The notes beneath the pieces were generated by a model. That model did no database searches. It saw nothing but the letters and a program-made list of their open reading frames with translations, and had not been told where the DNA came from. The translations under genes were made by a program, and so were the position numbers. Shown here one piece after another: positions 4,111 through 47,192 of a stretch of DNA of 64,000 bases; positions within the stretch are counted from its first letter, which is position 1, and every line of letters begins with the position of its first letter. The stretch covers positions 1-64,000 of the forward strand of contig JAIXSE010000013.1 of NCBI GenBank assembly GCA_027484825.1. The letters are read 5' to 3'. Source of the stretch: Rubrivivax sp. Lineage in GTDB: Bacteria; Pseudomonadota; Gammaproteobacteria; Burkholderiales; Burkholderiaceae_C.

Positions 4111-5797
4111 GGGTAGTGTCTTGGCCAGCAGAAGATGCGAGACGGGGCAGCAGCACACGGAATTCATTCACGTGCTGCGATTCCTGACGGTGATAGTCGA
4201 TCCGGGCACCGTACCGCTCGCAGAGTTCCCGGCAAATGTACAGGCCCAGGCCCGTGCCTCGGCTTCGGGTTGAAAAGAATGGTTCGAACAAGTGTCGTTC
4301 TACCTCGGCCGGGATGGGATCGGCGTCGCTCAGCACCGACAGACGGACCCAATCCATGCCTTCCTGCATGACTTCGACACGAACGGCGGCCGGCATCGGA
4401 CGCGCATGCCGCAGCCCGTTGTCCAGCAGATTGATCAGGATGCGGCGCAGGTGGTGCGGATCGAAACTCACCGTCGCCGTCTCTTCCAGGCCGATGGCCA
4501 GGCGCAAGGGGCTGGAGTCGTCCTGGGGCAGGCGCTGGGTGGCCGCCCAGTCCGTGCAGTATTCACGCACCAGCGGCGGCAGCTGCACCAGCTGCGGCAC
4601 GGAGGCAATGCCGGGCGCCACCTCCATCACATCGTCCACGATGCGCTTGAGACGCTCCACATTGCCCGCCACCATGCGGGTCAATTGCTCCAGCCGGGGC
4701 TGGCCGGCGCAGTCCTCTTCGAGCAGCGCATTGGCCTGCGCAATGGCGGTGAGCGGATTGCGGATCTCATGGGCAATGCCGGCCGAGACGCGCCCCATGG
4801 CCGCCAGCTTCTCCTGGCGGTTGCGGGCTTCAAGGTGGCGGTTGTCTTCGACGAACAGCACACACAGGTCGTCCCCGTCCAGCGACCGCATGGTGAAGCG
4901 CATGCGCACATGCAGTGAGCGCTGCAACCCGCCACCGAAGTCCAGCAGGACGTCGCGGCCGGTGTCCGGCCAGCTGCGTTCGCTGTAGGCCTGCGTCAGG
5001 GCGCGCAGCAGGGGGGACCAGGTGGGGGTGGCATCCAGCCGGAAGGGGCCGGGACGCAGCGTGGCGCCTTCGGCCAGCAGCGCGCGGGCGGCCGGATTGG
5101 CGGCGCGGACCAGGCCGCGACGGTCGGCCACCAGCACGCCCTCATCCATCTCCTCGATCACCAGGCGGTTCAGGTCGGCCTGCTGCCGGGCGTATTCCAG
5201 ACTGCCGCGGGCGGCGCGTTCCTCACGCGCCAGCCGGCTGGCCAGTTCATTGGCCAGCAGCGTGACCACAAACAGACCCACGCCCAGCAATCCGGCCTGG
5301 CTGATCCGCAGACCGCCCTCCAGACCCATCATCACCGCCCAGACCGCCACCGCCAGCAGTTGCAGGCTGGACAGCGCCGCGCAGGCCAGCGCGGGCAGAC
5401 GCGGCAACAGGGCACCCGCCATGAGCACCGGCATGAAGAGCAGGGCCCCATAGCTCAGACCGGCCGGGTCCCACCATTGCAGCAGGCTGAAGAGACTGAG
5501 GTCGACGCCGATGCTCAGGATGATCTGCCGCCAGCTCAGGGACTGCTGGTCCGGTGCGGGCGGCCAGGTGCCGCCGCCAAACCAGCGCGGCAGGATCCAG
5601 GCCAGCACCGCCTGCACCCCATAGAGCAGCGACAGCCAGGCCGCCCATGCGCTGGGCCGGGCGCCCATCAGACTGGCCAGCGACTGGGTGGCGAGCAGCG
5701 CCAGGCTCAATGTGGCCCGCGCCCCCATGAACGCGCGATACAGGCGCTGGGTGGTGCTGATGCCGGAGGCGCGGGCGGTGGTGTCGGAAAGGGGCAT
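4100..5797 (-). CDS. pilS: Sensor histidine kinase PilS
   Basis: Membrane sensor kinase for type IV pilus expression, partner of PilR directly downstream. 565 residues: about six transmembrane segments in residues 28-190, a PAS-like region at about 205-320, a HisKA domain with phospho-acceptor H343 (SAGIAHEIRNPLT) and a HATPase_c domain ending in GTGLGLYICRELCERYG. In Pseudomonas, PilS senses membrane pilin; that role is inferred here from homology and pairing. Confidence 0.88.
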   Translation of the reverse strand: MPLSDTTARASGISTTQRLYRAFMGARATLSLALLATQSLASLMGARPSAWAAWLSLLYGVQAVLAWILPRWFGGGTWPPAPDQQSLSWRQIILSIGVDLSLFSLLQWWDPAGLSYGALLFMPVLMAGALLPRLPALACAALSSLQLLAVAVWAVMMGLEGGLRISQAGLLGVGLFVVTLLANELASRLAREERAARGSLEYARQQADLNRLVIEEMDEGVLVADRRGLVRAANPAARALLAEGATLRPGPFRLDATPTWSPLLRALTQAYSERSWPDTGRDVLLDFGGGLQRSLHVRMRFTMRSLDGDDLCVLFVEDNRHLEARNRQEKLAAMGRVSAGIAHEIRNPLTAIAQANALLEEDCAGQPRLEQLTRMVAGNVERLKRIVDDVMEVAPGIASVPQLVQLPPLVREYCTDWAATQRLPQDDSSPLRLAIGLEETATVSFDPHHLRRILINLLDNGLRHARPMPAAVRVEVMQEGMDWVRLSVLSDADPIPAEVERHLFEPFFSTRSRGTGLGLYICRELCERYGARIDYHRQESQHVNEFRVLLPRLASSAGQDTTHER

Positions 5798-7088: not shown

Positions 7089-8492
7089 ATGGCATCCACT
7101 CTCACCGACCGCCTGAGTCGCCTCGTCAAGACGATGCGCGGGCAGGCCCGCATCACCGAAGACAACGTGCAGGACATGTTGCGGGAGGTGCGCATGGCCC
7201 TCCTGGAGGCGGACGTGGCCCTGCCCGTCGTTCGCGACTTCGTCGCCCGCGTCAAGGAAAAAGCCTTGGGCGCGGAGGTGGTGGGGTCCCTCTCCCCTGG
7301 CCAGGCGCTGGTGGGCATCGTCCACAAGGAGCTCTCGGCCACCATGGGCGAGGGCATTGCGGACATCAACCTGGCCGCCCAGCCGCCGGCCATCATCCTG
7401 ATGGCCGGCCTGCAGGGCGCTGGCAAGACCACCACCACCGCCAAGTTGGCCAAGCACCTGATCGAAAAGCGCAAGAAGAAGGTGCTGACGGTCTCGGCGG
7501 ACGTGTATCGCCCAGCGGCCATCGAACAGCTCAAGACGGTGACCGCCCAGGCCGGTGCCGAATGGTTCCCCTCCGCGCCGGACCAGAAACCGCACGACAT
7601 CGCGCTGGCCGCCCTGGACCATGCCCGCCGCCACTTCTTTGATGTGCTGCTGGTGGACACGGCCGGCCGCCTGGCCATTGATGAAGCCTTGATGGCGGAA
7701 ATCCGTGACCTGCACGCCACGCTCAAGCCGGTCGAAACCCTGTTTGTGGTGGACGCCATGCAGGGTCAGGACGCCATCAACACCGCCAAGGCCTTCCGCG
7801 AGGCCCTGCCGCTGACCGGTATCGTGCTGACCAAGCTGGATGGTGACTCACGCGGTGGCGCGGCGCTGTCGGTGCGGCAGATCACCGGGGCGCCCATCAA
7901 GTTCGCCGGCGTGTCGGAGAAGATCGACGGCCTGGAAGTCTTCGATGCAGAGCGTCATGCCGGCCGCGTGCTGGGCATGGGCGACATCGTGGCCCTGGTG
8001 GAGGAAGTCCAGAAGGGCGTGGACGTCGAGGCGGCGCAGAAGCTGGCCGAGAAGCTCAAGTCCGGAGACGGCTTTGATCTGAACGACTTCCTGGCCCAGA
8101 TCTCCCAGATGAAGAAGATGGGGGGCCTGTCCGGCCTGATGGACAAGCTGCCCACCCAGATGACCGCCAAGGCCGGCGCCGCCGACATGGACAAGGCCGA
8201 ACGCGACATGAAGCGCATGGAGGGCATCCTCAATGCGATGACCGCCAAGGAGCGCCGCCAACCGTCGCTCTTGATGGATGGCAAGTCCAAGGCCAGCCGC
8301 AAGCGCCGGATTGCCGCCGGTGCGGGCGTGCAGATCCAGGACGTGAACCGCCTGCTCAATCAGTTCGACCAGATGCAGGGGATGATGAAGAAGATGAAGG
8401 GCGGCGGCCTGATGAAGATGATGAAGAAGCTCGGCGGCATGAAGGGCATGAAGGGGATGATGGGCGGCGGAGGCGGCGGCATGCCGTTCTGA
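7089..8492 (+). CDS. ffh: Signal recognition particle protein Ffh
   Basis: SRP54 GTPase that binds 4.5S RNA and signal sequences of nascent membrane proteins and docks with FtsY. 467 residues: N domain (1-90), GTPase domain with GLQGAGKTTTTAKL (G1), DTAGRL (G3) and TKLDGDSRGG (G4), then a methionine-rich M domain ending in runs of MKKM and a GGGGGMPF tail. It converges on ftsY, its receptor, with a shared terminator between the two. Confidence 0.97.
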   Translation: MASTLTDRLSRLVKTMRGQARITEDNVQDMLREVRMALLEADVALPVVRDFVARVKEKALGAEVVGSLSPGQALVGIVHKELSATMGEGIADINLAAQPPAIILMAGLQGAGKTTTTAKLAKHLIEKRKKKVLTVSADVYRPAAIEQLKTVTAQAGAEWFPSAPDQKPHDIALAALDHARRHFFDVLLVDTAGRLAIDEALMAEIRDLHATLKPVETLFVVDAMQGQDAINTAKAFREALPLTGIVLTKLDGDSRGGAALSVRQITGAPIKFAGVSEKIDGLEVFDAERHAGRVLGMGDIVALVEEVQKGVDVEAAQKLAEKLKSGDGFDLNDFLAQISQMKKMGGLSGLMDKLPTQMTAKAGAADMDKAERDMKRMEGILNAMTAKERRQPSLLMDGKSKASRKRRIAAGAGVQIQDVNRLLNQFDQMQGMMKKMKGGGLMKMMKKLGGMKGMKGMMGGGGGGMPF

Positions 8493-8532
8493 CCGTTCGC
8501 GGCTCCGGCCAGTGCTGTCTCAGCAAAACGAA

Positions 8533-8550
8533 GGGCTCCCGAGGGAGCCC
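8533..8550. terminator. Bidirectional terminator between ffh and ftsY
   Basis: Perfect 8-bp stem GGGCTCCC/GGGAGCCC with a 2-nt loop. It is followed by TTTCTGCTTT on the plus strand and TTCGTTTTGC on the minus strand, so it can serve both convergent genes. Confidence 0.85.
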
Positions 8551-8579
8551 TTTCTGCTTTCAGTGAGCGTCGCTGCCGC

Positions 8580-9917
8580 TCATTCCAGCAGCGCTTGCGC
8601 GAACTCGCGGGCGTCGAAGGTCTGAAGGTCTTCCAGCTTCTCTCCCACGCCGATGAAATACACCGGCACCGGACGTTCCCGCGCAATGGCGGCCAGCACA
8701 CCACCCTTGGCGGTGCCGTCCAGCTTGGTGACGATCAAGGCCGTCAGGCCCAGCGCTTCGTCGAAGGCCTTGACCTGGGTCAGCGCGTTCTGGCCGGTGT
8801 TGCCGTCCACCACCAGCAGAATTTCATGCGGAGCGCCCTCTTGCGCCTTGCCGATCACCCGCTTGATCTTCTTGAGCTCTTCCATCAGGTGCAACTGGGT
8901 CGGCAGGCGGCCGGCCGTGTCGGCGATCACCACATCGACGCCGCGGGAGCGACCTGCGACCACTGCGTCGAAGGTGACGGCGGACGGATCGCCGCCTTCC
9001 TGGCTGACGATCTGCACGCGGTTGCGGTCGGCCCAGACCGACAGCTGTTCACGGGCGGCGGCACGGAAGGTGTCGGCGGCGGCCAGCAGCACGTTGGCCT
9101 GCGCATCCGCCAGATGGCGGGTGAGCTTGCCGATGCTGGTGGTCTTGCCGGCGCCGTTCACGCCCACCACCATCATCACGGTGGGCGAGTGCTCACCGAT
9201 GACCAGTTGGCGCTGCAGCGGCTGAAGCAATTCAGCCAGGGCATCCACCAGCAGCAGACGCACGGCCGCCGGGTCGGTGGCCTTGGTCTCCTTGACGCGG
9301 CGCTTGAGGTCCTGGAGCAGGAATTCGGTGGCCTTGACGCCGGCATCGGCCATCAGAAGCGCGGCTTCCAGCTCTTCATAGAGCTCGTCGCTGATCTGCG
9401 TGCCGGTGAAGACCTGGGCGATGCTGGAGCCGGTCTTGCGCAAGCCTTGACGGAGCTTGTCCATCCAGCTCTTGCGGGGAGCGGGATCGGGGGCTGGCGC
9501 CGGGATGGGTGCAGGTGCCGGGGTGGGCGCAGGTGCGGGGGCAGGCGTTGCCCGGACAGCGGGAGCCGTAGGGGCGGGCTGTTGGGGTGTTGCGACAGCT
9601 GAGGGACTGGGCGACGGCGCAGGTGTCGGCGCGGGCGCAGCCGGAAGTGGCGCCGGTTCAGCTGCCGTTGTTGCGGGGCTTGGTGCGGGCGCCGGAGCGA
9701 CCACTGCCGCAGGTTCGGCGGCCGATGTGGCCGCAGGTGCCGGCGCAGCAGGCCTCGTTGGCAAGGTGGCCGCAGCGGCGCTGTCGCTCGCCGACGTCGG
9801 CACTACCGGCGCCGCTGGCGGCTCAACAGCAGGGACGGCGGCAGGCGCCGGAGCCGGTTCCGCAGCAGGAGTGGGATCGGAACCGAAGCCCAGTTTTTTC
9901 TTGATGAAGCTGAACAT
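8580..9917 (-). CDS. ftsY: Signal recognition particle receptor FtsY
   Basis: SRP receptor GTPase at the inner membrane. 445 residues: a short basic N-terminus (MFSFIKKKLGFG), about 135 residues of almost uncharged Pro/Ala-rich sequence, then the NG domain (WMDKLRQGLRKTGSSIAQ onward) with GVNGAGKTTSIGKL, DTAGRLPTQ and TKLDGTAKGG. The E. coli A domain is acidic; here the linker is Pro/Ala low-complexity. Start at 9917 chosen because the family begins MFSF(F/I)KK; an in-frame codon at 9941 is an alternative. Confidence 0.95.
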   Translation of the reverse strand: MFSFIKKKLGFGSDPTPAAEPAPAPAAVPAVEPPAAPVVPTSASDSAAAATLPTRPAAPAPAATSAAEPAAVVAPAPAPSPATTAAEPAPLPAAPAPTPAPSPSPSAVATPQQPAPTAPAVRATPAPAPAPTPAPAPIPAPAPDPAPRKSWMDKLRQGLRKTGSSIAQVFTGTQISDELYEELEAALLMADAGVKATEFLLQDLKRRVKETKATDPAAVRLLLVDALAELLQPLQRQLVIGEHSPTVMMVVGVNGAGKTTSIGKLTRHLADAQANVLLAAADTFRAAAREQLSVWADRNRVQIVSQEGGDPSAVTFDAVVAGRSRGVDVVIADTAGRLPTQLHLMEELKKIKRVIGKAQEGAPHEILLVVDGNTGQNALTQVKAFDEALGLTALIVTKLDGTAKGGVLAAIARERPVPVYFIGVGEKLEDLQTFDAREFAQALLE

Positions 9918-9961
9918 GAAGGGGACTGCTCGCCGTTTCAAACGCCTTTTTTCGGCGGGGC

Positions 9962-9991
9962 TTGCATTGTCGTAGAAAACCTTGCTATAGT
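9962..9991 (+). promoter_or_regulatory. tRNA-Met promoter
   Basis: TTGCAT (9962-9967), 18-bp spacer, TATAGT (9986-9991), then a GC-rich discriminator (CGCG) as is usual for stringently controlled stable-RNA promoters. It ends about 15 bp before the mature tRNA 5' end. Confidence 0.7.
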
Positions 9992-10005
9992 CGCGTTCTT
10001 CGCAA

Positions 10006-10082
<77 letters not shown>

Positions 10083-10087
10083 AATTC

Positions 10088-10133
10088 AAAGCCTCGTAAG
10101 TACCGCTTTCAAAGCGCGTGTTTACGAGGCTTT
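10088..10133 (+). terminator. Nested hairpin terminator after tRNA-Met
   Basis: Perfect 12-bp stem AAAGCCTCGTAA/TTACGAGGCTTT. Inside its loop a second perfect hairpin, CGCTTT-C-AAAGCG (10104-10116), is nested. The T-tail is short (TTTCGTCGTTTG). It begins six bases after the tRNA CCA. Confidence 0.65.
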
Positions 10134-10323
10134 CGTCGTTTGGGCATTCGGGAACACCACGAAGCACAGATCACGCGTCGGCATCCCCTACTGGTCTACC
10201 GATAACAGCGGACAACCTGCTGCACAGCTCGTCCAGTCACTTTCTCCGGGGCTCCTTGTCCATCTGGTCTTCGATCAGGACCCCGCTGGGCTCAGCGACG
10301 AGGCGGAAGCTCATCGCGAGGTT

Positions 10324-10352
10324 TTGCGATTTTCGTTTGTTTCGAATAAGAT
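10324..10352 (+). promoter_or_regulatory. Promoter of the HTH/PIN toxin-antitoxin pair
   Basis: TTGCGA (10324-10329), 17-bp spacer, TAAGAT (10347-10352), in a locally AT-rich stretch ahead of the antitoxin gene. A GGAG ribosome-binding site follows shortly before the ATG at 10389. Confidence 0.55.
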
Positions 10353-10388
10353 GCTGTACAAATTAGCAGCCAAGCGGAGCCGTTCATC

Positions 10389-10856
10389 ATGACCCAGTCC
10401 ACCACCTTTGAAGCATCCCTGCCGGTTGCGCGCGAGGTTGCTGTGGCCACGCAGGGTCAGCGCGCACTGGCTGCATTTCTATCGACACAGTTCGAGACTC
10501 AGCGCATCCAGATCTTTGACGAAAAGAACGAGGCACACGCTGTCGAGCTGCCCACCTCCGCTCTGCGTCTTCTGGTCGACATCTTGTCCGAGCTGGCCGA
10601 AGGCAACGCCGTCAGGGTGGTCCCCATCCACGCGGAACTGACCACCCAGGAAGCGGCCGACATGCTCAACGTATCGCGCCCCCACTTGGTCAAACTGCTT
10701 GAGTCGGGTGCGCTGCCGTTCCACAAGGCAGGCAAGCATCGTCGAGTACGCTTCTCAGACCTCATGGCCTACAAAGCGGCACAGGAAGGACGGAGCTTGG
10801 CTGCAATGGAGGCACTTGCCGCACAGGCCCAGGCCTTACAGATGGGCTATGAATGA
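10389..10856 (+). CDS. Helix-turn-helix (excisionase-like) antitoxin
   Basis: 155 residues. The C-terminal half (about 84-135) is a MerR/excisionase-type winged HTH: LTTQEAADMLNVSRPHLVKLL followed by a basic wing (HKAGKHRRVRFSDLMAYK). The N-terminal half is probably a dimerisation or toxin-binding region. Its stop overlaps the start of the PIN gene (ATGA), which is classic type II toxin-antitoxin organisation. It likely neutralises the toxin and represses the shared promoter; both roles are inferred. Confidence 0.8.
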   Translation: MTQSTTFEASLPVAREVAVATQGQRALAAFLSTQFETQRIQIFDEKNEAHAVELPTSALRLLVDILSELAEGNAVRVVPIHAELTTQEAADMLNVSRPHLVKLLESGALPFHKAGKHRRVRFSDLMAYKAAQEGRSLAAMEALAAQAQALQMGYE

Positions 10857-11428
10857 AGAGCTCGCCTTTCACGGCCGTCTTCGACGCTTGCGTTCTGTAT
10901 CCAGCCCCATTGCGTGACTTCTTGATGTGGTTGGCATTGTCGGGGCGGTTCCGCGCTCGATGGACCGACCTCATCCACGATGAGTGGGTGAGAAACCTGC
11001 TGAAGAACCGCCCCGAGCTAGATCCCGCCAGTCTGCGGCGTACCGTCGAATGCATGAACGCTGCCGTTCCCGACGCACTCGTCACAGGTCACGAGGCATT
11101 GATCGAAGGGCTGACCCTGCCAGATCCTGACGATCGACACGTCCTCGCCGCGGCAATCCGATGCGGAGCCAGTGTCATCGTCACCTTCAATGAGCGGGAC
11201 TTCCCAGAGGAACAATTGGCTCCCTTTGGGATCGAAATTCAGCACCCCGACGAGTTCATCGACAACCTCTTCGATCTAGACCAGGCCGCGGTGGTGGCCG
11301 CCGCGCAGAAGCAACGCCACACACTCAAAAATCCACCTATTGATGCCGACCGCTACCTGGAGATCCTGCAAAGGCAGGGTCTGATCCGTACGGTGAAGAA
11401 CCTCGCAGGTTTCCGAACAGTCCTCTGA
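10853..11428 (+). CDS. PIN-domain ribonuclease toxin
   Basis: 191 residues. PIN-type acidic residues are in place: D11 (AVFDACVLYP), E44 (IHDEW), D94 (DPDDRHVLAAA) and D116 (TFNERDFP). The fold and length fit the VapC-like branch with a C-terminal extension (roughly 125-191) that pairs with excisionase-type antitoxins. Metal-dependent RNA cleavage is the family activity; the target is unknown. Translationally coupled to the antitoxin by a 4-bp overlap. Confidence 0.8.
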   Translation: MKSSPFTAVFDACVLYPAPLRDFLMWLALSGRFRARWTDLIHDEWVRNLLKNRPELDPASLRRTVECMNAAVPDALVTGHEALIEGLTLPDPDDRHVLAAAIRCGASVIVTFNERDFPEEQLAPFGIEIQHPDEFIDNLFDLDQAAVVAAAQKQRHTLKNPPIDADRYLEILQRQGLIRTVKNLAGFRTVL

Positions 11429-11666
11429 GTTGACAGGCGCCGGCACAGGTCCGCGTCGATCCACCCATTGTCAGACCCCAGTCAATAAGGTCGATCAGAG
11501 CAAGGTCCCCGTCTGGCGAAACGACCTGACTGAACTCCGTATGACATTGGGGCTTATCAAGACCAAGGCGGTGACCGTTTTCGGCCCTGGCATGACCCAC
11601 TTTGATGGACCGTTGCTTTAGCGAGGTTGGGAAACCTCAAGCGCCGACTCTCCAAACGGACCCACG

Positions 11667-12257
11667 TCAATCGAACGACAGCTTCAGCCTCTGCGCGACG
11701 CCCTCAAAGGTCACCCCACGATCGGCAAACCGATCCGCCTCTCGCTGGACCAATCGGCGGGCCATTTCCACATCGCCGGTGTGATAGTGGAACAAGGCGG
11801 GAAAGCCCCACGGGATGTACTGGACCCACCCCGTCTTCCCGAATGACTTGAGCGAATCCACGCCATTCAATGGCTCGACAAATGACACCAGCACGCGGCT
11901 GGCCAGATGGGCGGCCATGGCGTCCAGGTCGGTGGTGTCGTCCACCCGGAACTGCGCGGGGAGTGTCGTGTCCAGCTGTTCCAGACGCACCATGAATTGG
12001 CAATCAAAGTACTTCGGGAAGACGGGCGGCGCTTTTCCGTCGATCACGCACAGCTCATCAAAAGCCACGCCGGCATTGATGTAGAACCCGCCTTCGCTTC
12101 CGTAATTCCATTGGGAGCTTTGGACGTTGAGGTAGTGCATCACCGCGCCCTGTCTGCGGGCAAAGTGAGTGGCATTCTTCTTGAAGCCCTGCGCTTTCAA
12201 GGCCGGCGCAAGCCCCCGCTTCACGACCTCATTGATGGCGTCACGCGCTTTGCTCAT
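11667..12257 (-). CDS. DUF4304-like protein
   Basis: 196 residues. The opening (ARDAINEVVKRGLAPALKAQGFKKNATHFARRQG...HYLNVQSSQWN) fits the DUF4304 family, whose function is unknown. No signal peptide or membrane segment. The start at 12257 has GGAG 7 nt upstream and is preferred to 12302. It stands alone between a toxin-antitoxin pair and a hydrolase remnant, consistent with accessory DNA. The 238 bp before it (11429-11666) hold no gene I can recognise. Confidence 0.65.
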   Translation of the reverse strand: MSKARDAINEVVKRGLAPALKAQGFKKNATHFARRQGAVMHYLNVQSSQWNYGSEGGFYINAGVAFDELCVIDGKAPPVFPKYFDCQFMVRLEQLDTTLPAQFRVDDTTDLDAMAAHLASRVLVSFVEPLNGVDSLKSFGKTGWVQYIPWGFPALFHYHTGDVEMARRLVQREADRFADRGVTFEGVAQRLKLSFD

Positions 12258-12338
12258 GTCGGCTCCATCTCCCTCTGAAATGCTGTTGAAGACCGCCAGC
12301 ATTCAAGCACGAACGCGACATGCGGTCATACGGTCGCC

Positions 12339-12525
12339 ATGACGCGTCCCGTGCTGCTCCCGGGAATGGATGGAACTGGTCAGGGCCGCATTGCCGGCGG
12401 GCGAGCCGTACATCCTGCTCGGCGAGTCATTCTCCGGTCCGATTGCCCTGGCCTTGGCTGCCGAGCGCCCGCACGGCAGCATCCGCCCCATCATCAACCA
12501 CACTGATGACCGCCATCAGAAGTGA
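12339..12525 (+). pseudogene. Remnant of an alpha/beta hydrolase gene
   Basis: A start codon opens MTRPVLLPGMDGTG, the usual N-terminus of an alpha/beta hydrolase. The frame then shifts: from 12370 another frame reads MELVRAALPAGEPYILLGES, followed by FSGPIALALAAERP, which includes the nucleophile elbow GESFSG. The block between these two motifs is missing and the C-terminal part is lost. A deletion plus frameshift has left about 60 codons. Confidence 0.7.
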
Positions 12526-12602
12526 TGAGTTCTCTTATCAGTCGGCGCCGCGCACCATGACGGCACTGGCACTTCGCCACTGCAACTGACAAGGAACTTC
12601 CG

Positions 12603-13121
12603 ATGAGCGACATCCTCTGGCCCGCTGGCTACGTCCCCGGCTTCACCGACAACTTCTGCTCCAACGAGGTCATCGTCACCGGCCTCACAGTCGAAGATGT
12701 CTGGCCGTTTCTGAACATTCCCAGCCGCTGGCCCACTTACTACGCCAACTCCGCCGACACCCGTTTCTACGATGGCAAAGGCCCTGAACTGGAAGACGAC
12801 GTGCGCTTTTATTTCTCCACCTTCGGCTTCCCGGTCGAAGCTCAAGTGGTGGAGCATGTCGCGCCGGTCAAAGGCCAGCCTGCTCGCGTCGCCTGGCATG
12901 GCTGGGCCGGCGAGGAAGGCACGGACGGACGTCTGGACGTGCACCACGCCTGGCTGCTGGAAGAGCTGTCCGGAGGCCGCCTGCGCATCCTGACGCAGGA
13001 AACCCAGGTGGGGCAACCGGCGCGTGAGCTGGCCAAGGCCCAACCCAATCCCATGATCAATGGCCATCAGGACTGGCTCAACGGCCTGGTCGATGCCGCC
13101 CGTCGCGCCAAGCAGTCATGA
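12603..13121 (+). CDS. SRPBCC-family (polyketide cyclase/dehydrase-like) protein
   Basis: 172 residues with the START/Bet v1-like pattern: VIVTGLTVEDVWPFLNIPSRWPTYYANS, later FPVEAQVVEHVAP...ARVAWHGWAG and a C-terminal helix ending DWLNGLVDAARR. The family binds small hydrophobic ligands; the substrate cannot be told from sequence. It overlaps the next gene by 4 bp (ATGA), so the two are probably one unit. Confidence 0.7.
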   Translation: MSDILWPAGYVPGFTDNFCSNEVIVTGLTVEDVWPFLNIPSRWPTYYANSADTRFYDGKGPELEDDVRFYFSTFGFPVEAQVVEHVAPVKGQPARVAWHGWAGEEGTDGRLDVHHAWLLEELSGGRLRILTQETQVGQPARELAKAQPNPMINGHQDWLNGLVDAARRAKQS

Positions 13122-13999
13122 GCAAGCCTATTGCTTTCCTCGGGCTGGGTGCCATGGGCAGCCGCATGGCCACGCGACTGCTGCAGGCAGGTCACCACGT
13201 CACAGTGTGGAATCGCAGCCCGGCGCCCATGCAGGCACTCGTCGCGGCCGGAGCCGAACCGGCTTCGACCCCTCGGCAGGCCGCGCAAGGCGCGGACTTC
13301 GTCATCGCCATGGTGCGTGACGACGAGGCCGCGCAGCAGGTCTGGTGCAACCCCGAGGCCGGCGCACTGGCGGGCATGGGGCCAGCAGCGGTGGCCATCG
13401 AGAGCTCCACCCTGTCGCTCGGCGCGGTCCGGCAACTGCATGAGGCCGCACAGGCGGCCGGGGTGCAGCTCCTGGATGCGCCCGTGTCAGGCTCCCGCCC
13501 GGCTGCGCAGGCCGGCCAACTGGTGTATCTCGTCGGTGGCGACGCAGAAGCGTTTGCCCGCGCCGAGCCGATTCTGCTGGCGATGGGGTCGGCAGCCCGG
13601 CATGTGGGCCCGGTCGGGCACGGCGCGCTCGCCAAGCTGGTCACCAACACGCTGCTGGGGGTGCACGTCGCAGCGCTGGCAGAACTGATCGGGCTGCTGC
13701 GTGGGCAAGGTGTGGCTGCGCAAGAGGTGCTGCAGGCGGTCGCCGCCACGCCGGTGTGGGCGCCGGTGGACCACTATCTCTCCGGCTCGATGCTGGGCGG
13801 CGACTTCACCCCGCAGTTCCCGGTGGCCCTCATCAGCAAAGACTTCGGTTATGCCATTGAGGCAGGCGGCAGCCCTGAGAACATGCCGATGGCCGTGGCG
13901 GCCAAGGACGTGTTTGAGCGGGCCGCGGCCGAAGCGCTGGGGGACCAGAACATGACGGCCGTGGTGCAGCTGTATCCGACCGCGACGCCCCGCGACTGA
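13118..13999 (+). CDS. NAD(P)-dependent 3-hydroxyisobutyrate dehydrogenase-family oxidoreductase
   Basis: 293 residues: Rossmann motif GLGAMGSRMATRLLQAGHHVTVWNRSP at the N-terminus, the substrate-binding LLDAPVSGSRPAAQAGQL motif, and HGALAKLVTNTLLG with the catalytic lysine of beta-hydroxyacid dehydrogenases. The best family guess is glyoxylate/succinic semialdehyde reductase-like; the exact substrate is unknown. Coupled to the SRPBCC gene; the LysR gene beyond is convergent. Confidence 0.82.
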   Translation: MSKPIAFLGLGAMGSRMATRLLQAGHHVTVWNRSPAPMQALVAAGAEPASTPRQAAQGADFVIAMVRDDEAAQQVWCNPEAGALAGMGPAAVAIESSTLSLGAVRQLHEAAQAAGVQLLDAPVSGSRPAAQAGQLVYLVGGDAEAFARAEPILLAMGSAARHVGPVGHGALAKLVTNTLLGVHVAALAELIGLLRGQGVAAQEVLQAVAATPVWAPVDHYLSGSMLGGDFTPQFPVALISKDFGYAIEAGGSPENMPMAVAAKDVFERAAAEALGDQNMTAVVQLYPTATPRD

Positions 14000-14024
14000 T
14001 AGGGCACGCGGCGCCGTCCTGGGG

Positions 14025-14945
14025 TCACTCAGACGTCTGCGCCGCTGTCTCCGGCGCGCAGGCCAGCACGAGTTGCTCCCGCAGCCAGCGCTGCCGCGGG
14101 TCTGCATGATTGCGGGCGTGCCAGGCCACCAGCTTGGTGAAGCCGGGAACCGCCAGGGGCGGTGCCTGCTCCACCAAGCCTTGAACGCCCGGCAGCAAGC
14201 GCTCGGGCACCAACGCCACCAGGTCGGTGCTGCGCACCATGTCCAGCAGCATGCCGAAGCTGGGCACGGACACACACACCCGCCGGTGCCGGCCCAGCGC
14301 CGCCAGCGCTTCATCCGTAGCCCCCACAAAGCCCCCGCCCTGCAAGGACACGATGCCGTGGTCGAGGGCGCAGAAGTCGTCCAGCGTCAGCGTCTCGGAC
14401 GCCGCGGCTGGATGGCCTTCGCGCAGCACGCACACATAGCGCTCGACGAACAGCGTCCGGCTGTGCAAATCCGGTGGGGCCATTTGCGGCGTGATCAGGG
14501 CCAGGTCCAGCTCGCCTCGCTCCATCTGCTCCAGCAATTCAGGCCCGTGCGCAGGCAAGACCGCAACCCGCACGCCGGGCGCTTGCTGACGCAACCTGCC
14601 AACGAAAGGCACGACCACGGCCCGTAGCGCATAGTCCGTGGCCGACACGGTCACCGTCATTTCCACCGTTGCCGGATCAAACACGGTGGGACGGACCACC
14701 GCCTCGATGTCAGCCAGGATGCGCTTGATGGGAGCACTGATCTCCAAGGCCCGGGCGGTCGGCGAAACGCCCCGCTGGGAGCGCACGAACAGCGGGTCGC
14801 CCAATGCGTCCCGCAAGCGGTTGAGGGTGGCGCTGACGGCAGGCTGCGTCACCGCCAGCCGCTCTGCCGCACGGGTGACGTTGCGCTCATCCATCAAAGC
14901 GTCGAAAGCCTTGAGGAGATTCAGATCGAGGTTACGCAGTTGCAT
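14025..14945 (-). CDS. LysR-family transcriptional regulator
   Basis: 306 residues. N-terminal winged HTH (LRNLDLNLLKAFDALMDERNVTRAAERLAVTQPAVSATLNRLR) and a LysR substrate-binding domain from about residue 90. The NodD/LinR-like opening NLDLNLLKAFDALM is common in this group. Its 3' end faces the SRPBCC/dehydrogenase pair, which may or may not be a target. Confidence 0.88.
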   Translation of the reverse strand: MQLRNLDLNLLKAFDALMDERNVTRAAERLAVTQPAVSATLNRLRDALGDPLFVRSQRGVSPTARALEISAPIKRILADIEAVVRPTVFDPATVEMTVTVSATDYALRAVVVPFVGRLRQQAPGVRVAVLPAHGPELLEQMERGELDLALITPQMAPPDLHSRTLFVERYVCVLREGHPAAASETLTLDDFCALDHGIVSLQGGGFVGATDEALAALGRHRRVCVSVPSFGMLLDMVRSTDLVALVPERLLPGVQGLVEQAPPLAVPGFTKLVAWHARNHADPRQRWLREQLVLACAPETAAQTSE

Positions 14946-41974: not shown

Positions 41975-42652
41975 TCAGGACTTGCCAAGCAGGGCGTAAG
42001 GCCCGCCCTTCTCCAGCGCCCGCTGGTAGGCGGGCCGTGCGTGGATACGGGCCAGGAAGTCAGTGATACGCGGCTGGCGAGCGGCCTCACCGCCCCGGGC
42101 GGCGGCGGCTTCCAGCGGGAAGCTCATCTGCACGTCGGCGGCGGTGATGGAGTCGCCGGCGAACCAGGCGCTCTTGCCCAGTTCCGCCTCCAGATAGTTC
42201 ATGTGATTGGCGATCTGCGGCAGCACAAACGACGACTTGGCCTTGCCGGCAATCGCCTTGGCAATCGGCTTGATGAAGAACGGGACCGGCCCCGACTCGA
42301 TGCGATCGAACACCAGCTTGAGCAGCAGCGGCGGCATGGCCGAGCCTTCGGCATAGTGCATCCAGTAGCGGTAGCGCAGCGCCTCGGGCGTGCCGGGGGC
42401 CGGCTTGAAGCGGCCTTCTCCGTATCGGTCCACCAGGTACTCCAGGATGGCGCCCGATTCGGCGATCACCAGCTCTCCATCGGTGATGACCGGCGACTTG
42501 CCCAGCGGATGCACCCGTCGCAGCTCGGGAGGCGCCAGCATGGTCTGCGGGTCACGCTGATAGTGCTTGATCTCGTAGGGCAGGCCCAGCTCTTCGAGCA
42601 GCCACAGCACGCGCTGCGAGCGGGAGTTGTTGAGGTGGTGAACGGTGATCAT
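41975..42652 (-). CDS. Glutathione S-transferase
   Basis: 225 residues. Thioredoxin-like N-domain (ITVHHLNNSRSQRVLWLLEELGLPYEIKHYQRD; KSPVITDGELVIAESGAILEYLVDRYG with the ES glutathione-binding pair) and a helical C-domain ending KSAWFAGDSITAADVQMSFPLEA. It starts 10 nt after the reverse transcriptase stop on the same strand, so it may be co-transcribed with the retron. Confidence 0.88.
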   Translation of the reverse strand: MITVHHLNNSRSQRVLWLLEELGLPYEIKHYQRDPQTMLAPPELRRVHPLGKSPVITDGELVIAESGAILEYLVDRYGEGRFKPAPGTPEALRYRYWMHYAEGSAMPPLLLKLVFDRIESGPVPFFIKPIAKAIAGKAKSSFVLPQIANHMNYLEAELGKSAWFAGDSITAADVQMSFPLEAAAARGGEAARQPRITDFLARIHARPAYQRALEKGGPYALLGKS

Positions 42653-42662
42653 GGGCGGGAGT

Positions 42663-44039
42663 CTACTGAACGAAGGAAATGGCATCGAAGAGGCGCTGCA
42701 GCTTGGCCTGGCGGCTGGGCGCAACGAACTGCCGGGCCCAGGCCAGGCGGCCCAGAAGGGGCGCGCGCAGGGACAGGTCCACCGCAGGTTCCCGGCCGAG
42801 GCGGTGCAGCTCGGCGCGCAGGCGATCGTAATCGGGGCGGGACAGATGCGGGGTCTCGTTGACGACCAGGCCAGTCACCGTCTGCCGCCCCCCAGAGCGC
42901 ATCAACCGGGTCTTGTCGGCACGCAGCCGGAAGCCCTCGTCGTGCGCAATGGCCCGCATCCAGGCGTGCAAGCGGGCTGCGTCCAGGGCCGGGCTGGTGG
43001 CACCGGAGAACACCAGGTCATCGGCATAGCGGGAATAACGCGCGCCGAATCGCTGCGCCAGACTGTCAAGCCGCAGGTCCAGCCGGAACGCACACAGATT
43101 GGCCAGTTGCGGCGACGTGGGAGCGCCTTGCGGGAGATGCGGGGAGGCCAGTCGGCGCAGGTCGTGCCAACTCAGGCCGCCTTCGTCCTGCAGCCGCTCA
43201 CGGACTGCTCGCGGCGTGCGCACGGTGCAGAGCGTGGTGAGGTGGTCGGCCACCGCCTCCCCGACCCCCAGTGTGCGGAACAGGGCCCGGATGCGGGCAG
43301 CACCGATGCTGGGGAAGAAGTCCTGCAGGTCAAAACGGAACACCCAGGCCTGCCCGGCATGATGACCGGCGTGGCTGGCGACGTTGCGTCCGGCCACAAA
43401 GCCGTGGGCGGCTTCATGGACCGGCAGCAGGTCCAGCAGACTGCGCAACAGCCGGCGCTGGACCGCCTTGAGGGCCGGCATCGGGGCCTCGATCAGACGA
43501 AGGCCGCCGCGCCGCTTGGGCACCAGCAAGGCCCGATAGTGGCCCGTGGCCTGCACATGGGGCCGATGAGGCATGGCCGTCGCCTCGCGATACCGCTGCG
43601 CCGGTCCGGCCAGAACGTCCAGCATCGCAAGGTCGATGCCCAGTCCAGCAGCCAGGTCCGCCACGGTGTGCCAGCCGGGCAGCGGCAGATCTTCCAGGGC
43701 AAAGGGCGGCGGCGTCATGCGGGCGGGTCGCAGCAGCAGTCGGCGGACCTGGAGCGCAGGGCACTCGGGTGCGAAACCGGCCTGAAATTCGGGGCGCTGC
43801 TGGAGATGCGCGGCCAGGGCCTGCGGTGTCATGCCGCGCCAGACGGGCGCGCTCAGGCTCGCCAGATGCTGGCACAGCGGCTGCAGCCAGGGACGGTGCT
43901 CGGGCCCGACGCAGGCCATCGCGCGGCCGAGCAGCGCTGTGGCGCCCCGGCCGCCGGGCGCTTCATCGTCGGTCTGGAAGGCGCGGGCCAGCGACAGGGC
44001 AATCCAGCGGGGATAGGTCAGGGGCGCCGAGGAACTCAT
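42663..44039 (-). CDS. Retron-type reverse transcriptase
   Basis: 458 residues. RT core from about 165: YRALLVPKRRGGLRLIEAP, then AAHGFVAGRNVASHAGHH (HAGHH, 223-227, at the place of the retron NAxxH motif), motif A FRFDLQDFFPSI (D237), LPQGAPTSPQLANL, catalytic YADD (D340, D341), and VTG (388-390), the retron region Y signature. Residues 1-165 are an extension as in the myxobacterial Mx162 RT, which shares AAHGFVAGR (recalled). No maturase, endonuclease or DGR features. ATG at 44039 chosen; a TTG at 44120 inside the a2 repeat is in frame. A predicted msr-msd RNA lies 65 bp upstream on the same strand. Composition matches the neighbours, with no sign of recent transfer. Confidence 0.9.
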   Translation of the reverse strand: MSSSAPLTYPRWIALSLARAFQTDDEAPGGRGATALLGRAMACVGPEHRPWLQPLCQHLASLSAPVWRGMTPQALAAHLQQRPEFQAGFAPECPALQVRRLLLRPARMTPPPFALEDLPLPGWHTVADLAAGLGIDLAMLDVLAGPAQRYREATAMPHRPHVQATGHYRALLVPKRRGGLRLIEAPMPALKAVQRRLLRSLLDLLPVHEAAHGFVAGRNVASHAGHHAGQAWVFRFDLQDFFPSIGAARIRALFRTLGVGEAVADHLTTLCTVRTPRAVRERLQDEGGLSWHDLRRLASPHLPQGAPTSPQLANLCAFRLDLRLDSLAQRFGARYSRYADDLVFSGATSPALDAARLHAWMRAIAHDEGFRLRADKTRLMRSGGRQTVTGLVVNETPHLSRPDYDRLRAELHRLGREPAVDLSLRAPLLGRLAWARQFVAPSRQAKLQRLFDAISFVQ

Positions 44040-44104
44040 GACAGTCGAGAGGGCAAGCCAACAAGGTCGGGCCGGTTCGGACTGCCACCGCGCCAAAAGA
44101 AGGT

Positions 44105-44258
44105 GACTCCCGTCTGCCAACGAGCCGGTCCTGCGAGTTCATCGTTGCGCGCAGCGCAATGCGGAGCTCGCGCCGGAATGCGTCACTCAGTGCAATGCCA
44201 CGGGGATGCCCCGCGGCCCGGAAGCCGGAGCCTCCGACAGGCTTGGCGGACAGGAGTC
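44105..44258 (-). ncRNA. Predicted retron msr-msd non-coding RNA
   Basis: Read on the minus strand: a1 repeat (44258-44243), directly followed by G at 44242 in an A-G-C context, the expected 2'-5' branching guanosine; msr hairpin 1 (AAGCC..GGAG-G-CTCC..GGCTT, 44245-44223); msr hairpin 2 (GCCGCGGGG-CAT-CCCCGTGGC, 9 bp, 44217-44197); a small CACT-G-AGTG palindrome; the msd stem (44171-44154 paired with 44150-44133, 3-nt loop, 14 Watson-Crick and 2 G-U of 18, base extended by CCGG/CCGG); a2 repeat (44120-44105). Order, spacing and position ahead of the RT gene match known retrons. Boundaries of the reverse-transcribed part are inferred. Confidence 0.85.
44243..44258 (-). repeat. Retron a1 inverted repeat (partner a2 at 44105-44120)
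   Basis: On the minus strand a1 reads GACTCCTGTCCGCCAA and a2 reads TTGGCAGACGGGAGTC. They pair over 16 positions with 14 Watson-Crick pairs, one G-U and one mismatch, bringing the priming guanosine next to the 3' end of the msd template. Confidence 0.85.
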
Positions 44259-44264
44259 GCGCGG

Positions 44265-44270
44265 ATTATG
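44265..44270 (-). promoter_or_regulatory. Probable -10 box of the retron transcript
   Basis: CATAAT on the minus strand, 6 bp upstream of the first base of a1 (44258), the spacing expected if the RNA starts at a1. No good -35 hexamer was found at 16-18 bp. The rest of 44271-44349 is the GC-rich divergent region shared with the antiporter gene. Confidence 0.5.
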
Positions 44271-44349
44271 ACGTCGCTTCTTGACGGGGCGGCACCCGTC
44301 TTGCCCTGCAGGCGCACGCGGCCCGCACGGGCTGCGCTGAACGCCGCTC

Positions 44350-45912
44350 ATGCACACCTTCGAATGGATCATCGCCCTGCTGCTGGGGGCCGCGCTGCTG
44401 GCCATGCTGGCGCGGCGCATCGGAGCGCCCGCGCCGGCCTTGCTGGCCCTGGGCGGCATGGCGCTGGCCTTCTGGCCGGGCAGCCCCACCTGGACCCTGG
44501 ACCCTGAACTGGCGCTGGCCCTGTTCGTGGCGCCGGTGCTGATGGACACCGCCTATGACGCCTCCAAGCGCGACCTGAAGGCCAACTGGCGCCCGGTGGC
44601 AGGGCTGGTGCTGGCGGCGGTGGGCACGACCGTCATCGGGGTGGCCGTGGTGAGCCGGTGGTTGATCCCCGACATGCCGTGGGCGGTGGCCGTGGCGCTG
44701 GGGGCGATCGTGGCCCCACCGGATGCGGCAGCCGCCACGGCGGTGATGCGGCAGCTGCGCCTGCCCTACCAGGTGCTCAATGTCCTGGAGGGCGAGAGCC
44801 TGCTCAACGACGCCAGTGCGCTGCTGATCTACCGGCTCGCGCTGATGACGGTGATGGCGGGCATGCCGGGTCCCGGCACCCTGGCGCCCATCCTGCTGAT
44901 GACGGTCGTCGGCAGCGTGGTGGCCGGCGTGGCGTTCGGGTATTTGCTGCGGCCACTCACACGGCACAGTGCCCATGCGCCGACTGCCCTGGTGATCCAG
45001 TTCTGCTGCACCTTCGGCGTGTGGATCGTGGCGGAGAAGCTGGGCTTGTCCGGCATCCTCACCATGGTGGCCTTCGCCATGACCAGCTCACGCGGCGGCG
45101 GCACCACCATTCCGGCGCGGCTGCGGGTGCCCATCTTCGCGGTGTGGGAGACCGTGGTGTTTGTGCTCAATGCCTTCGCCTTCGTGCTGATCGGACTGCA
45201 ACTGCGACCGATCTGGCAGCGGCTGGGCGCGTCCGGCACCCATCAGGAGGCCCTTGTGTTTGCCGCCGTGGTGCTGGGCGTGACGATTGCGGCCCGCGTG
45301 GCCTGGGTGATGACCTACAGCGCCTTCACCGCGCGGCACGGTGCACTGGCGGACAGTGCCCGCACGCATCCGGCGTGGGCCGGCGGCATGGTGTTGTCCT
45401 GGGCGGGCATGCGGGGCATCGTGACGCTGGCGGCAGCCTTTGCGGTGCCCGAGCGGCTGCCGGACGGATCCCCCTTCCCCTATCGCGACCTGATCCTGCT
45501 GAGCGCCTTCGGCGTGGTCTTTGGCACGCTGGTGATGCAGGGCTTCACCCTCAAGCCGCTGATCCGCTGGCTGCGCATGGAGGACAACGACCCGGTGGGC
45601 CAGGAGGTGCGCAACGGCCGCATCCAGATCTACCAGGCGCTGCTGGCCTCGATCGAGAACGACGCCTCGTTTCCCGCAGCGCTGCTGCGCAAGGAATATC
45701 AGGCCGTGGTGGACATGAATGCCAAGGACCGCCGTGAACTGCCGCTGGAAGAGGTGCCGGGCGGACCGCTGCGCCGCCAGGCCATCGAGGTGGCGCGCCG
45801 CAAGGCGGTGGAACTGCGGGAGCAGGACGTGATCGGTGACCACGCCTACCGGGTGCTGGTTCAGGAGCTGGACTGGGCGGAGCTGTCGGCGGGCGGGGCG
45901 GTGGAGGACTGA
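44350..45912 (+). CDS. CPA1-family Na+/H+ antiporter
   Basis: 520 residues: about 11-12 transmembrane helices, then a cytoplasmic tail from about 400. Seen: IVAPPDAAAATAVMRQLRLP (the CPA1 PPD segment), LEGESLLNDASALLIYR (ion-binding ND pair), and AWAGGMVLSWAGMRGIVTLAAAFAVP (WxGxRG). It exchanges protons for Na+ or K+ at the inner membrane. Its 3' end overlaps the convergent fic gene by 52 bp. Divergent from the retron. Confidence 0.88.
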   Translation: MHTFEWIIALLLGAALLAMLARRIGAPAPALLALGGMALAFWPGSPTWTLDPELALALFVAPVLMDTAYDASKRDLKANWRPVAGLVLAAVGTTVIGVAVVSRWLIPDMPWAVAVALGAIVAPPDAAAATAVMRQLRLPYQVLNVLEGESLLNDASALLIYRLALMTVMAGMPGPGTLAPILLMTVVGSVVAGVAFGYLLRPLTRHSAHAPTALVIQFCCTFGVWIVAEKLGLSGILTMVAFAMTSSRGGGTTIPARLRVPIFAVWETVVFVLNAFAFVLIGLQLRPIWQRLGASGTHQEALVFAAVVLGVTIAARVAWVMTYSAFTARHGALADSARTHPAWAGGMVLSWAGMRGIVTLAAAFAVPERLPDGSPFPYRDLILLSAFGVVFGTLVMQGFTLKPLIRWLRMEDNDPVGQEVRNGRIQIYQALLASIENDASFPAALLRKEYQAVVDMNAKDRRELPLEEVPGGPLRRQAIEVARRKAVELREQDVIGDHAYRVLVQELDWAELSAGGAVED

Positions 45913-47075
45913 TCGACGCCATGCGTCCAGCCCGGCACGTTCACGTAATAACGAAGCGCCCGGCCAGCCCCCGCGGTCCAGAGAACGCCGGAGGAGACCA
46001 GCGCCGTCAGGTCCCGGGTGGCCGTGGCCTTGGAGGTGCCGGTCATCTTCATGTATTTGTCGGCATTCAGCCCGCCCAGAAAACCGCCATCGCCGTCGTC
46101 CAGCAGCCGCTGGACCACTTTGCGTGAACGCTCCTGGGTGAGGTGGCTGGCATGCTGGTCCCAGAAGGCGCGTTTGAGCAAGGCACTCTGGATGACACCG
46201 CTGGCGTGTCGGCAGGCCGCCGCAAACTGCTGCACCAGCCAGCGGACCCAGGACGTCACATCCAGATCGCCCCGCTGGGCCTGATTGAGCTGGTCGTAAT
46301 ACGCCTTGCGGGACGTCAGCAACTGACCGGAGAGACTGTACAGACGCACCGAGCCGCCCTGGTGCTGCGCCAGCGCCAGATCCATCACTGCACGGCCCAG
46401 CCGGCCATTGCCGTCCTCGAAAGGATGGATGCTCTCAAACCAGAGATGCGCGATGGCAGCGCGCGCCAGTCCATCCAGTGGTGTGGACGTGCGAGCCGGT
46501 GCGCGCAGGTCGGGCGGCGTTGTGGCGGCGAACCAGGCCAAAAAACGGTCCATTTCCGACCGGACCTGGTCGGAGGGCGGGGCCTGGTAGTGCACCACTT
46601 CCCGGCCTGGCCGACCGCTGACAATCTGCATCGGGTCTTCGTGGTCCCGATAGCGCCCCACGGCAATGCGCACGATGCCGGAGGTGCCGCCGGGGAACAG
46701 CGCGGATTGCCACCGGCAGAGGCGGTCTTGGTCCAGCGGCTCGTTGATGGCGGTCACCGCGTCGTTGACGATGTCGACCAGGCCGTCCACATGACGGTCG
46801 ATGACGCCGTCCTCCGACAGACCCAGGCGCCGCATGACCGAGGACCGGACCACCTCAGCCGCCAGCGCTTCTCCTTCGATCGCGGCCGTGGCCACCACTT
46901 CCTTGGAGAAGGCTTCCAGGGTCACCTGGTTGGCCTGGTCAATACCGATGGCGTGCGCCCGCCCTTCCAACTCACCCAGCGCCCGATGGGCGTCTGCCAG
47001 GTCGGCAAGCGCCGCGGTGCTGTCGAAGTGGAAATGGGGCCATTCGGGCCGCTGCCAGATGTACATGAGCCGCAT
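45861..47075 (-). CDS. Fic family protein with C-terminal winged helix
   Basis: 404 residues. N-terminal Fic_N region (YIWQRPEWPHFHFDS), the inhibitory helix motif TAAIEGE, which fits (S/T)xxxE(G/N), the Fic core HPFEDGNGRLGR (catalytic His, phosphate-binding loop), and a C-terminal winged HTH (MKMTGTSKATATRDLTALVSSGVLWTAGAGRALRYYV). Family activity is AMPylation from ATP, kept off by the inhibitory Glu. The HTH plus the operator array at its own start suggest self-regulation. The ATG at 47075 is preferred; TTG at 47084 and ATG at 47066 are alternatives. Confidence 0.88.
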   Translation of the reverse strand: MRLMYIWQRPEWPHFHFDSTAALADLADAHRALGELEGRAHAIGIDQANQVTLEAFSKEVVATAAIEGEALAAEVVRSSVMRRLGLSEDGVIDRHVDGLVDIVNDAVTAINEPLDQDRLCRWQSALFPGGTSGIVRIAVGRYRDHEDPMQIVSGRPGREVVHYQAPPSDQVRSEMDRFLAWFAATTPPDLRAPARTSTPLDGLARAAIAHLWFESIHPFEDGNGRLGRAVMDLALAQHQGGSVRLYSLSGQLLTSRKAYYDQLNQAQRGDLDVTSWVRWLVQQFAAACRHASGVIQSALLKRAFWDQHASHLTQERSRKVVQRLLDDGDGGFLGGLNADKYMKMTGTSKATATRDLTALVSSGVLWTAGAGRALRYYVNVPGWTHGVDQSSTAPPADSSAQSSS

Positions 47076-47192
47076 CTTAGCCAAATCGGCTCATGATGTG
47101 AGCCGATTTATATCATTTGCGGCTCATATTTTGAGCCGTATACATTAATTTCCGGCTCACATTCTGAGCCGTATCGTCGATTTTTCGGCTCA
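47066..47192 (-). promoter_or_regulatory. 33-bp-phased operator array upstream of fic
   Basis: Half-sites TGAGCCG occur at 47066, 47099, 47132 and 47165, and CGGCTCA at 47087, 47120, 47153 and 47186: exactly every 33 bp, about three helical turns. They form three full palindromes CGGCTCA-N5-TGAGCCG and are separated by AT-rich 14-bp spacers. The first half-site lies within the first fic codons. From 47193 to 47364 follows the katG leader, where no further site was recognised. Confidence 0.9.

What the first reader, a model, noticed from the sequence alone, without database searches (positions are those of the whole stretch)
42663..44270. Complete retron: reverse transcriptase plus msr-msd RNA
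Seen in sequence: an RT with YADD, VTG and a HAGHH variant of the NAxxH motif. 65 bp upstream, on the same strand, a 154-nt segment has 16-nt terminal inverted repeats (a1/a2), an A-G-C right after a1 as in known retrons, two msr hairpins, an 18-bp msd stem and a -10 box 6 bp before a1. Known: this is the retron layout, and the RT resembles the long myxobacterial Mx162 type. Inferred: it makes a branched msDNA with a DNA part of roughly 55-75 nt. The base composition looks native, as with vertically kept myxobacterial retrons. I know of no described retron at this locus.
Basis: partly seen in the sequence, partly recalled or inferred. Interest (0 to 1): 0.92.

Follow-up and report, generated by a model that had tools for sequence, protein, structure and literature searches.

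The report
Stand-alone retron without an effector gene
The sequence holds what looks like a real retron, a bacterial gene pair that should copy part of its own RNA into small DNA strands; unlike most studied retrons it has no partner toxin gene beside it, so what it does for the cell is an open and testable question.

Summary
The finding is right in its core. On the minus strand a 458-aa retron-type RT (42663-44039) follows a 154-nt structured RNA (44105-44258) with 16-nt a1/a2 repeats, a putative priming G (44242), two msr hairpins, an msd stem and a CATAAT box. The structure is conserved: a1 pairs with its own a2 far better than with other species' (0 of 20,000 permutations, 31 of 39 loci), and 12 of 38 pairs show compensatory change in 13 species. 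38 of 38 long-RT loci examined carry the RNA just upstream; 28 of 28 RNA hits in 399 family genomes lie beside an intact or broken RT. New here: the unit is only RNA plus RT. No other frame in the flanks is shared by more than 4 of 20 genera, and one relative holds just RNA+RT in 1.66 kb where the window's own genome has 32 bp. So no effector was found in cis. The element descends within genera, changed site once in Roseateles, and decays in some species. I read it as an effectorless, self-contained retron near PADLOC RT_other/RT_outgroup. msDNA production and any defence role are inferred.

The parts
42663..44039 (-). retron-type reverse transcriptase, 458 aa, YADD / VTG / HAxxH
   Evidence: AlphaFold2 model mean pLDDT 88.5; top Foldseek hits are retron RTs Ec86, Eco2, Eco7
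43686..44039 (-). N-terminal extension, residues 1-118; predicted helices at 9-87; fast evolving; no family or fold match found
44103..44259 (-). msr-msd RNA as matched by covariance model R1 (window sequence is in its training set)
44243..44258 (-). a1 repeat (GACTCCTGTCCGCCAA)
44242..44242 (-). predicted priming (branch) guanosine, first base after a1
   Evidence: inferred by analogy with PMC6868368
44220..44235 (-). msr hairpin 1 (6 bp, 4-nt loop)
44197..44217 (-). msr hairpin 2 (9 bp, 3-nt loop)
44121..44196 (-). msd template region (upper bound 76 nt); stem about 44125-44176; expected cDNA has + strand sequence, about 56-76 nt
   Evidence: length inferred
44105..44120 (-). a2 repeat (TTGGCAGACGGGAGTC)
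44265..44270 (-). -10 box CATAAT, 6 nt before a1
   Evidence: sequence; CATAATC in 13 of 13 Roseateles

Best explanation
A classical two-part retron. One promoter transcribes the msr-msd RNA and the RT. The a1/a2 stem presents the 2'-OH of G44242; the RT, holding the msr probably through its 9-bp/3-nt-loop hairpin, copies the msd into a branched msDNA of roughly 56-76 nt that stays in an RT-RNA-DNA particle (inferred from known retrons). No effector is encoded in cis. The most likely role is phage defence or a related guard function in which the RT's own variable helical N-domain, or a host protein encoded elsewhere, does the effector's work (inferred, about 0.45). Shown: RT family, RNA structure and its coevolution, pairing of RNA and RT in every locus examined, a minimal 1.66-kb unit, purifying selection, inheritance within genera. 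Not shown: msDNA, branch point, function. The confidence below is for the retron reading, not for the role.
For: RT. RNA: own a1/a2 pairing 8.84 of 11 outer positions against 5.70 when swapped, 0 of 20,000, on 31 of 39 loci (8 lacked a sequence anchor and were dropped; three anchors, L064, L097 and L098, look misplaced and weaken the result); 97.6% of 494 cells paired, 12 of 38 pairs changed on both sides, 0 of 500 shuffles, slid controls 34-43% paired. Linkage: model R2 finds the RNA in 11 of 11 relatives not used to build it (E 2e-5 to 4e-11) and in 0 of 14 loci of other retron-type RTs at E<=0.1, most of which have only 1.5-kb flanks; 28 of 28 RNA hits in 399 genomes lie beside an RT, of which at least three (G121, G269, G336) are frame-broken or interrupted. 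No effector: no frame outside the RT is shared by more than 4 of 20 genera; in G005 only RNA+RT fit between LysR and sensor kinase genes (tblastn match ends 1,657 bp apart, 279 bp before and 11 bp after the RT), where G000, G001, G003, G011 and G012 have 20-98 bp. Selection: RT dN/dS 0.17-0.24 in four comparisons.
Against: No msDNA data. 3 of 16 genus genomes lack it or keep a remnant and RTs are broken in others, so it is dispensable and might be near-neutral. The N-domain has no recognised effector fold. The msd stem alone is not unusually stable.
Confidence: 0.85

Rival explanations
1. Retron whose effector is encoded elsewhere in the genome, so the two work in trans.
For: The RNA-RT pair is kept without a widely shared neighbour; the same genome has a second, type XIII retron with SWIM and WGR/HEAT partners.
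Against: RTs of the type XIII-like group were found in only 5 of 16 genus genomes (grouping by the tree), while 13 of 16 have the stand-alone RT, so those partners cannot be the general answer. No genome-wide co-occurrence test was made.
Confidence: 0.25
2. Near-neutral or selfish retroelement that makes msDNA without a host function.
For: Patchy (27 of 399 family genomes at E<=1e-60), losses and decay, faster protein change than its neighbours.
Against: dN/dS 0.17-0.24 and coevolution of a1/a2; persistence across genera as single clades.
Confidence: 0.25
3. The glutathione S-transferase gene 14 bp downstream is the effector and RNA, RT and GST form an operon.
For: Same strand, 13-36 bp from the RT match end in 5 of 5 site-A species.
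Against: No GST match (E<=1e-15) in the flanks of the other 8 Roseateles loci or of the 25 loci from other genera.
Confidence: 0.03
4. Not a retron: a group II intron-like or other RT next to a chance hairpin.
For: Some similarity to group II RTs (NCBIfam TIGR04416, 43 bits, cut-off 300).
Against: Best sequence and fold matches are retron RTs; the RNA coevolves and was found beside every long RT examined.
Confidence: 0.02

Closest known systems
Myxobacterial retrons Mx162, Mx65, Sa163, Ne144 (as described in PMC6868368, passages and section 6)
   Same: Long N-terminal RT extension; msr 5' of msd; a1/a2; host-like codon use and vertical inheritance reported
PADLOC models RT_other (PDLC02949) and RT_outgroup (PDLC03740)
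   Same: Best two matches of the window RT (E 5e-114 and 2e-109); both match 32 of 32 members of A3
   Different: How these groups are defined (effector, RNA) could not be read here; Mestre 2020 was not held
Type XIII retrons (RT + SWIM + HEAT/WGR proteins, PADLOC names)
   Same: Third best RT match (E 6e-89)
   Different: Separate branch in the RT tree; no such genes among the window's neighbours; R2 finds no RNA at the type XIII locus L100 or its kin
Solved retron RTs Ec86 (Eco1), Eco2 (Ec67), Eco7 (Ec78)
   Same: RT core, residues about 161-443
   Different: These work with effectors in cis or fused (entry titles and PMC12405507 abstract, otherwise recalled); their aligned part does not include the window's N-domain
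Lone retrons Bth1 and Sda1 (PMC12548924, section 6 and passages)
   Same: Retron RT + RNA without the usual effector; Bth1 reported to make RT-DNA
   Different: Those are a case disrupted by a group II intron and one with another defence system in the effector's place; here the stand-alone state was seen at 38 loci from 20 genera

Membership tests
Retron (classical) | RT of the retron lineage with YADD, VTG and NAxxH-like motif | tested here: met
   N of NAxxH is H in the window protein
Retron (classical) | msr-msd RNA upstream on the same strand with a1/a2 repeats | tested here: met
Retron (classical) | msr hairpins and msd stem kept by compensatory change | tested here: met
Retron (classical) | priming G next to a1, usually in TAGC, also CAGC, GAGC, CAGA or ACGC | tested here: met
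   G present directly after a1; context AAGC in the window, AAG then varied bases in most relatives, other contexts in a few. AAGC is not in the list of PMC6868368. Use as primer not tested
Retron (classical) | production of branched msDNA | not testable with these tools
   needs wet-lab work
Tripartite defence retron (types I-XIII) | effector gene or fused effector domain in cis | tested here: not met
   no neighbour frame shared by more than 4 of 20 genera; the G005 unit is RNA+RT only. Whether the N-domain is an effector is open
Type XIII retron | adjacent SWIM and HEAT/ARM or WGR genes | tested here: not met
   the nearest neighbours in the window are a GST and an antiporter (named from sequence); contrast L100
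Myxobacterial Mx162 group | long N-terminal RT extension | tested here: met
   homology of the two extensions not tested
Myxobacterial Mx162 group | RT clusters with Mx162/Sa163/Mx65 RTs | not tested
Rfam RNA families (release 15) | match to any curated family | tested here: not met
   0 matches at E<=1 in 42000-45000; only a tRNA at 10006-10079 at gathering level in the whole window

The most novel reading that the evidence does not exclude
A self-contained retron in which the fast-evolving helical N-domain of the RT is itself the effector or sensor: one RNA and one protein make up the whole defence system, a simpler plan than the tripartite retrons and possibly the answer to what the long myxobacterial RTs do.
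Probability: 0.25. Interest if true: 0.75.

Novelty: new member of a known kind. Interest (0 to 1): 0.5.

Why it matters
Retron function is understood mainly for elements with a linked or fused effector. Here is a family, seen in 20 genera of the same order, in which only the RNA and RT travel together, with natural occupied, empty and decayed sites in closely related species. That makes the question of what an effectorless retron does directly testable, and gives a structured RNA that matches no Rfam family and a short msd that may suit ssDNA-production tools.

Tried and rejected

Papers: PMC6868368 passages and section 6; PMC12548924 passages and section 6; PMC4244168, PMC12262390, PMC9252829, PMC8867640 passages; others only in search listings. 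Mestre 2020 and Khan 2024 were not held, so the type scheme is known here only from citing papers and PADLOC names. No paper holding both 'retron' and 'Roseateles' was found; the library is partial.

Full report
What is there. The minus strand of the window carries a 458-aa RT (stop at 42663, ATG at 44039). Pfam gives RVT_1 at E 7e-18; PADLOC gives RT_other 5e-114, RT_outgroup 2e-109 and RT_XIII 6e-89; NCBIfam matches lie below its cut-offs; the closest solved sequences are retron RTs, Ec86 first. The AlphaFold2 model (32-row alignment, mean pLDDT 88.5, pTM 0.71) finds retron RTs Ec86, Eco2 and Eco7 first in the PDB. YADD, VTG and an NAxxH variant are present.

The RNA. Upstream on the same strand lie CATAAT (44265-44270), a1 (44243-44258), a G (44242), a 6-bp hairpin, a 9-bp hairpin with a 3-nt loop, a linker, an msd stem and a2 (44105-44120), 65 bp before the RT. 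PMC6868368 (section 6) describes this order, and notes that RTs Ec86 and Ec73 need an 8- or 9-bp stem with a three-base loop. The whole segment folds far better than shuffles (z -5.06, 0 of 200); the msd stem alone does not.

Conservation. In 13 Roseateles sequences (A1) the RNAalifold structure keeps 97.6% of 494 cells paired, with two-sided changes on 12 of 38 pairs; 0 of 500 shuffles reach the values for cells paired, two-sided changes or covariation score, and 2 of 500 reach the pair-type count; sliding the partners by 1-3 columns drops pairing to 34-43%. The structure was derived from the same alignment, so the slide control leans in its favour. A second test used sequence anchors only (CAAG, and ACC...TTG): 31 of 39 loci had both anchors, 8 were dropped. 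Each a1 pairs with its own a2 at 8.84 of 11 outer positions, against 5.70 (sd 0.31, maximum 6.94) when a2 is permuted, 0 of 20,000; one per genus (15) 8.67 against 5.92, within the genus (13) 8.77 against 6.90, also 0 of 20,000.

Linkage of RNA and RT. The RNA was found upstream of the RT at all 38 loci examined with a long RT of this family (13 Roseateles, 25 from 19 other genera); the weakest had E 0.024 with model R1 (L090) and 7e-7 with R2. The 13 Roseateles sequences had built R1. From RNA end to RT match start is 3-488 nt in the 37 loci other than the window; the match starts well inside the protein at loci such as L088 and L089. R2 (32 rows) found the RNA at 11 of 11 relatives not used for it, including three Burkholderia replicons (L215-L217) and G571 from another family, and at 0 of 14 loci with other retron-type RTs (E<=0.1). 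In 399 family genomes 28 have the RNA at E<=1e-4 and 27 the long RT at E<=1e-60 (31 with any match, 4 of them only of the type XIII-like group). 26 are shared; G417 was missed by the stricter genome filter but found locally (L090); G269 and G336 have RTs that are frame-broken or interrupted, and the RT of G121 also lies in two frames. No RNA hit was seen away from an RT gene.

No effector found in cis. Among open frames of 90 codons or more in the fetched flanks of the 38 loci (at least 5.8 kb upstream and 1.6 kb downstream, mostly about 8 kb), those that do not overlap the RT form clusters that reach at most 4 of the 20 genera: 3 clusters with four, 7 with three. In the window the neighbours are a GST (14 bp downstream) and an antiporter; they are shared only by five species: the window, L001 (R. 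depolymerans), L002 (R. terrae), L064 and L065. In eight other Roseateles species the retron sits at another place; in the seven of these whose contig reaches both sides it lies between a LysR gene and a sensor kinase gene. That place is empty in the window's genome and in the other four site-A species, with 20-98 bp between the two gene matches, while in G005 it holds RNA+RT alone (1,657 bp; 279 bp before and 11 bp after the RT match). Other species carry further DNA there (up to 5,280 bp), and G002 has 1,847 bp without a retron, so the site also takes other inserts.

History. In the RT tree each of the seven genera with two or more members is one clade, and the five site-A species are one clade inside Roseateles (quick method, SH-aLRT): descent within genera with one change of site. 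Of 16 genus genomes 13 have the full RT; G010 keeps the 5' part of the RNA and RT fragments at the LysR/kinase site, with the YADD region gone; G002 has no match and G007 only a different retron-type RT at 35% identity. RT dN/dS against four site-A relatives is 0.17-0.24; in each of the four comparisons it is the highest of the genes compared, tied once by a methyltransferase; dS is high in the more distant pairs. The first 118 residues change fastest in sequence (58-80% identity, RT core 75-88%), though their dN/dS is not above the core's in one of four comparisons (L002). Composition is native (GC3 0.82 against 0.81-0.90 in five other window genes).

Mechanism. Inferred from known retrons: transcription from the CATAAT promoter, recognition of the msr by the RT, priming from the 2'-OH of G44242, copying of the msd to a DNA of about 56-76 nt, RNase H trimming. 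Function is not shown. Defence or a guard role is my first choice (about 0.45) because it is the established role of several retrons, the element is patchy, sits at variable sites and evolves fast under constraint; an effector in trans and a near-neutral element are serious rivals.

Novelty. The kind is known, and a review notes that some retrons lack proximal effectors (PMC8867640, passages). What is added is this RNA family, its AAG priming context in most members, the minimal RNA+RT unit shown by empty and occupied sites, and its spread in this order.

Noticed in passing
L100 (G000:C35:376961-393821), RT 7344-9578 minus, SWIM 9637-11811 minus, WGR/HEAT 11361-14609 minus: The same genome carries a second, separate retron of type XIII (PADLOC RT_XIII 1e-174, SWIM_XIII 9e-212, WGR_XIII 3e-234); RTs of the same tree group are in G001, G005, G006 and G015.
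   Followed up: partly
G002:C43, L129 about 2632-4479: The LysR / sensor kinase site holds 1.85 kb of other DNA in a species without this retron, so the site may be a small insertion hotspot.
   Followed up: no
L074 7863-8104: Decaying retron in G010: 5' part of the RNA and RT fragments remain, YADD region gone.
   Followed up: yes
window 45861-47084 minus: A Fic-like protein near the retron, matched in L001 but not in the flanks of the other three site-A species; named by me from its sequence, no family search run.
   Followed up: no
L219 (G336) about 3673-4384: An RT of this family appears interrupted by a transposase-like stretch, named by me from its sequence.
   Followed up: partly
L216 3560-4909 (Burkholderia pyrrocinia pBPJTT): Annotated 'reverse transcriptase family protein' WP_258285182.1 with this RNA at 3383-3548 upstream; annotated neighbours are an SDR oxidoreductase and a D-alanyl-D-alanine carboxypeptidase.
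   Followed up: partly
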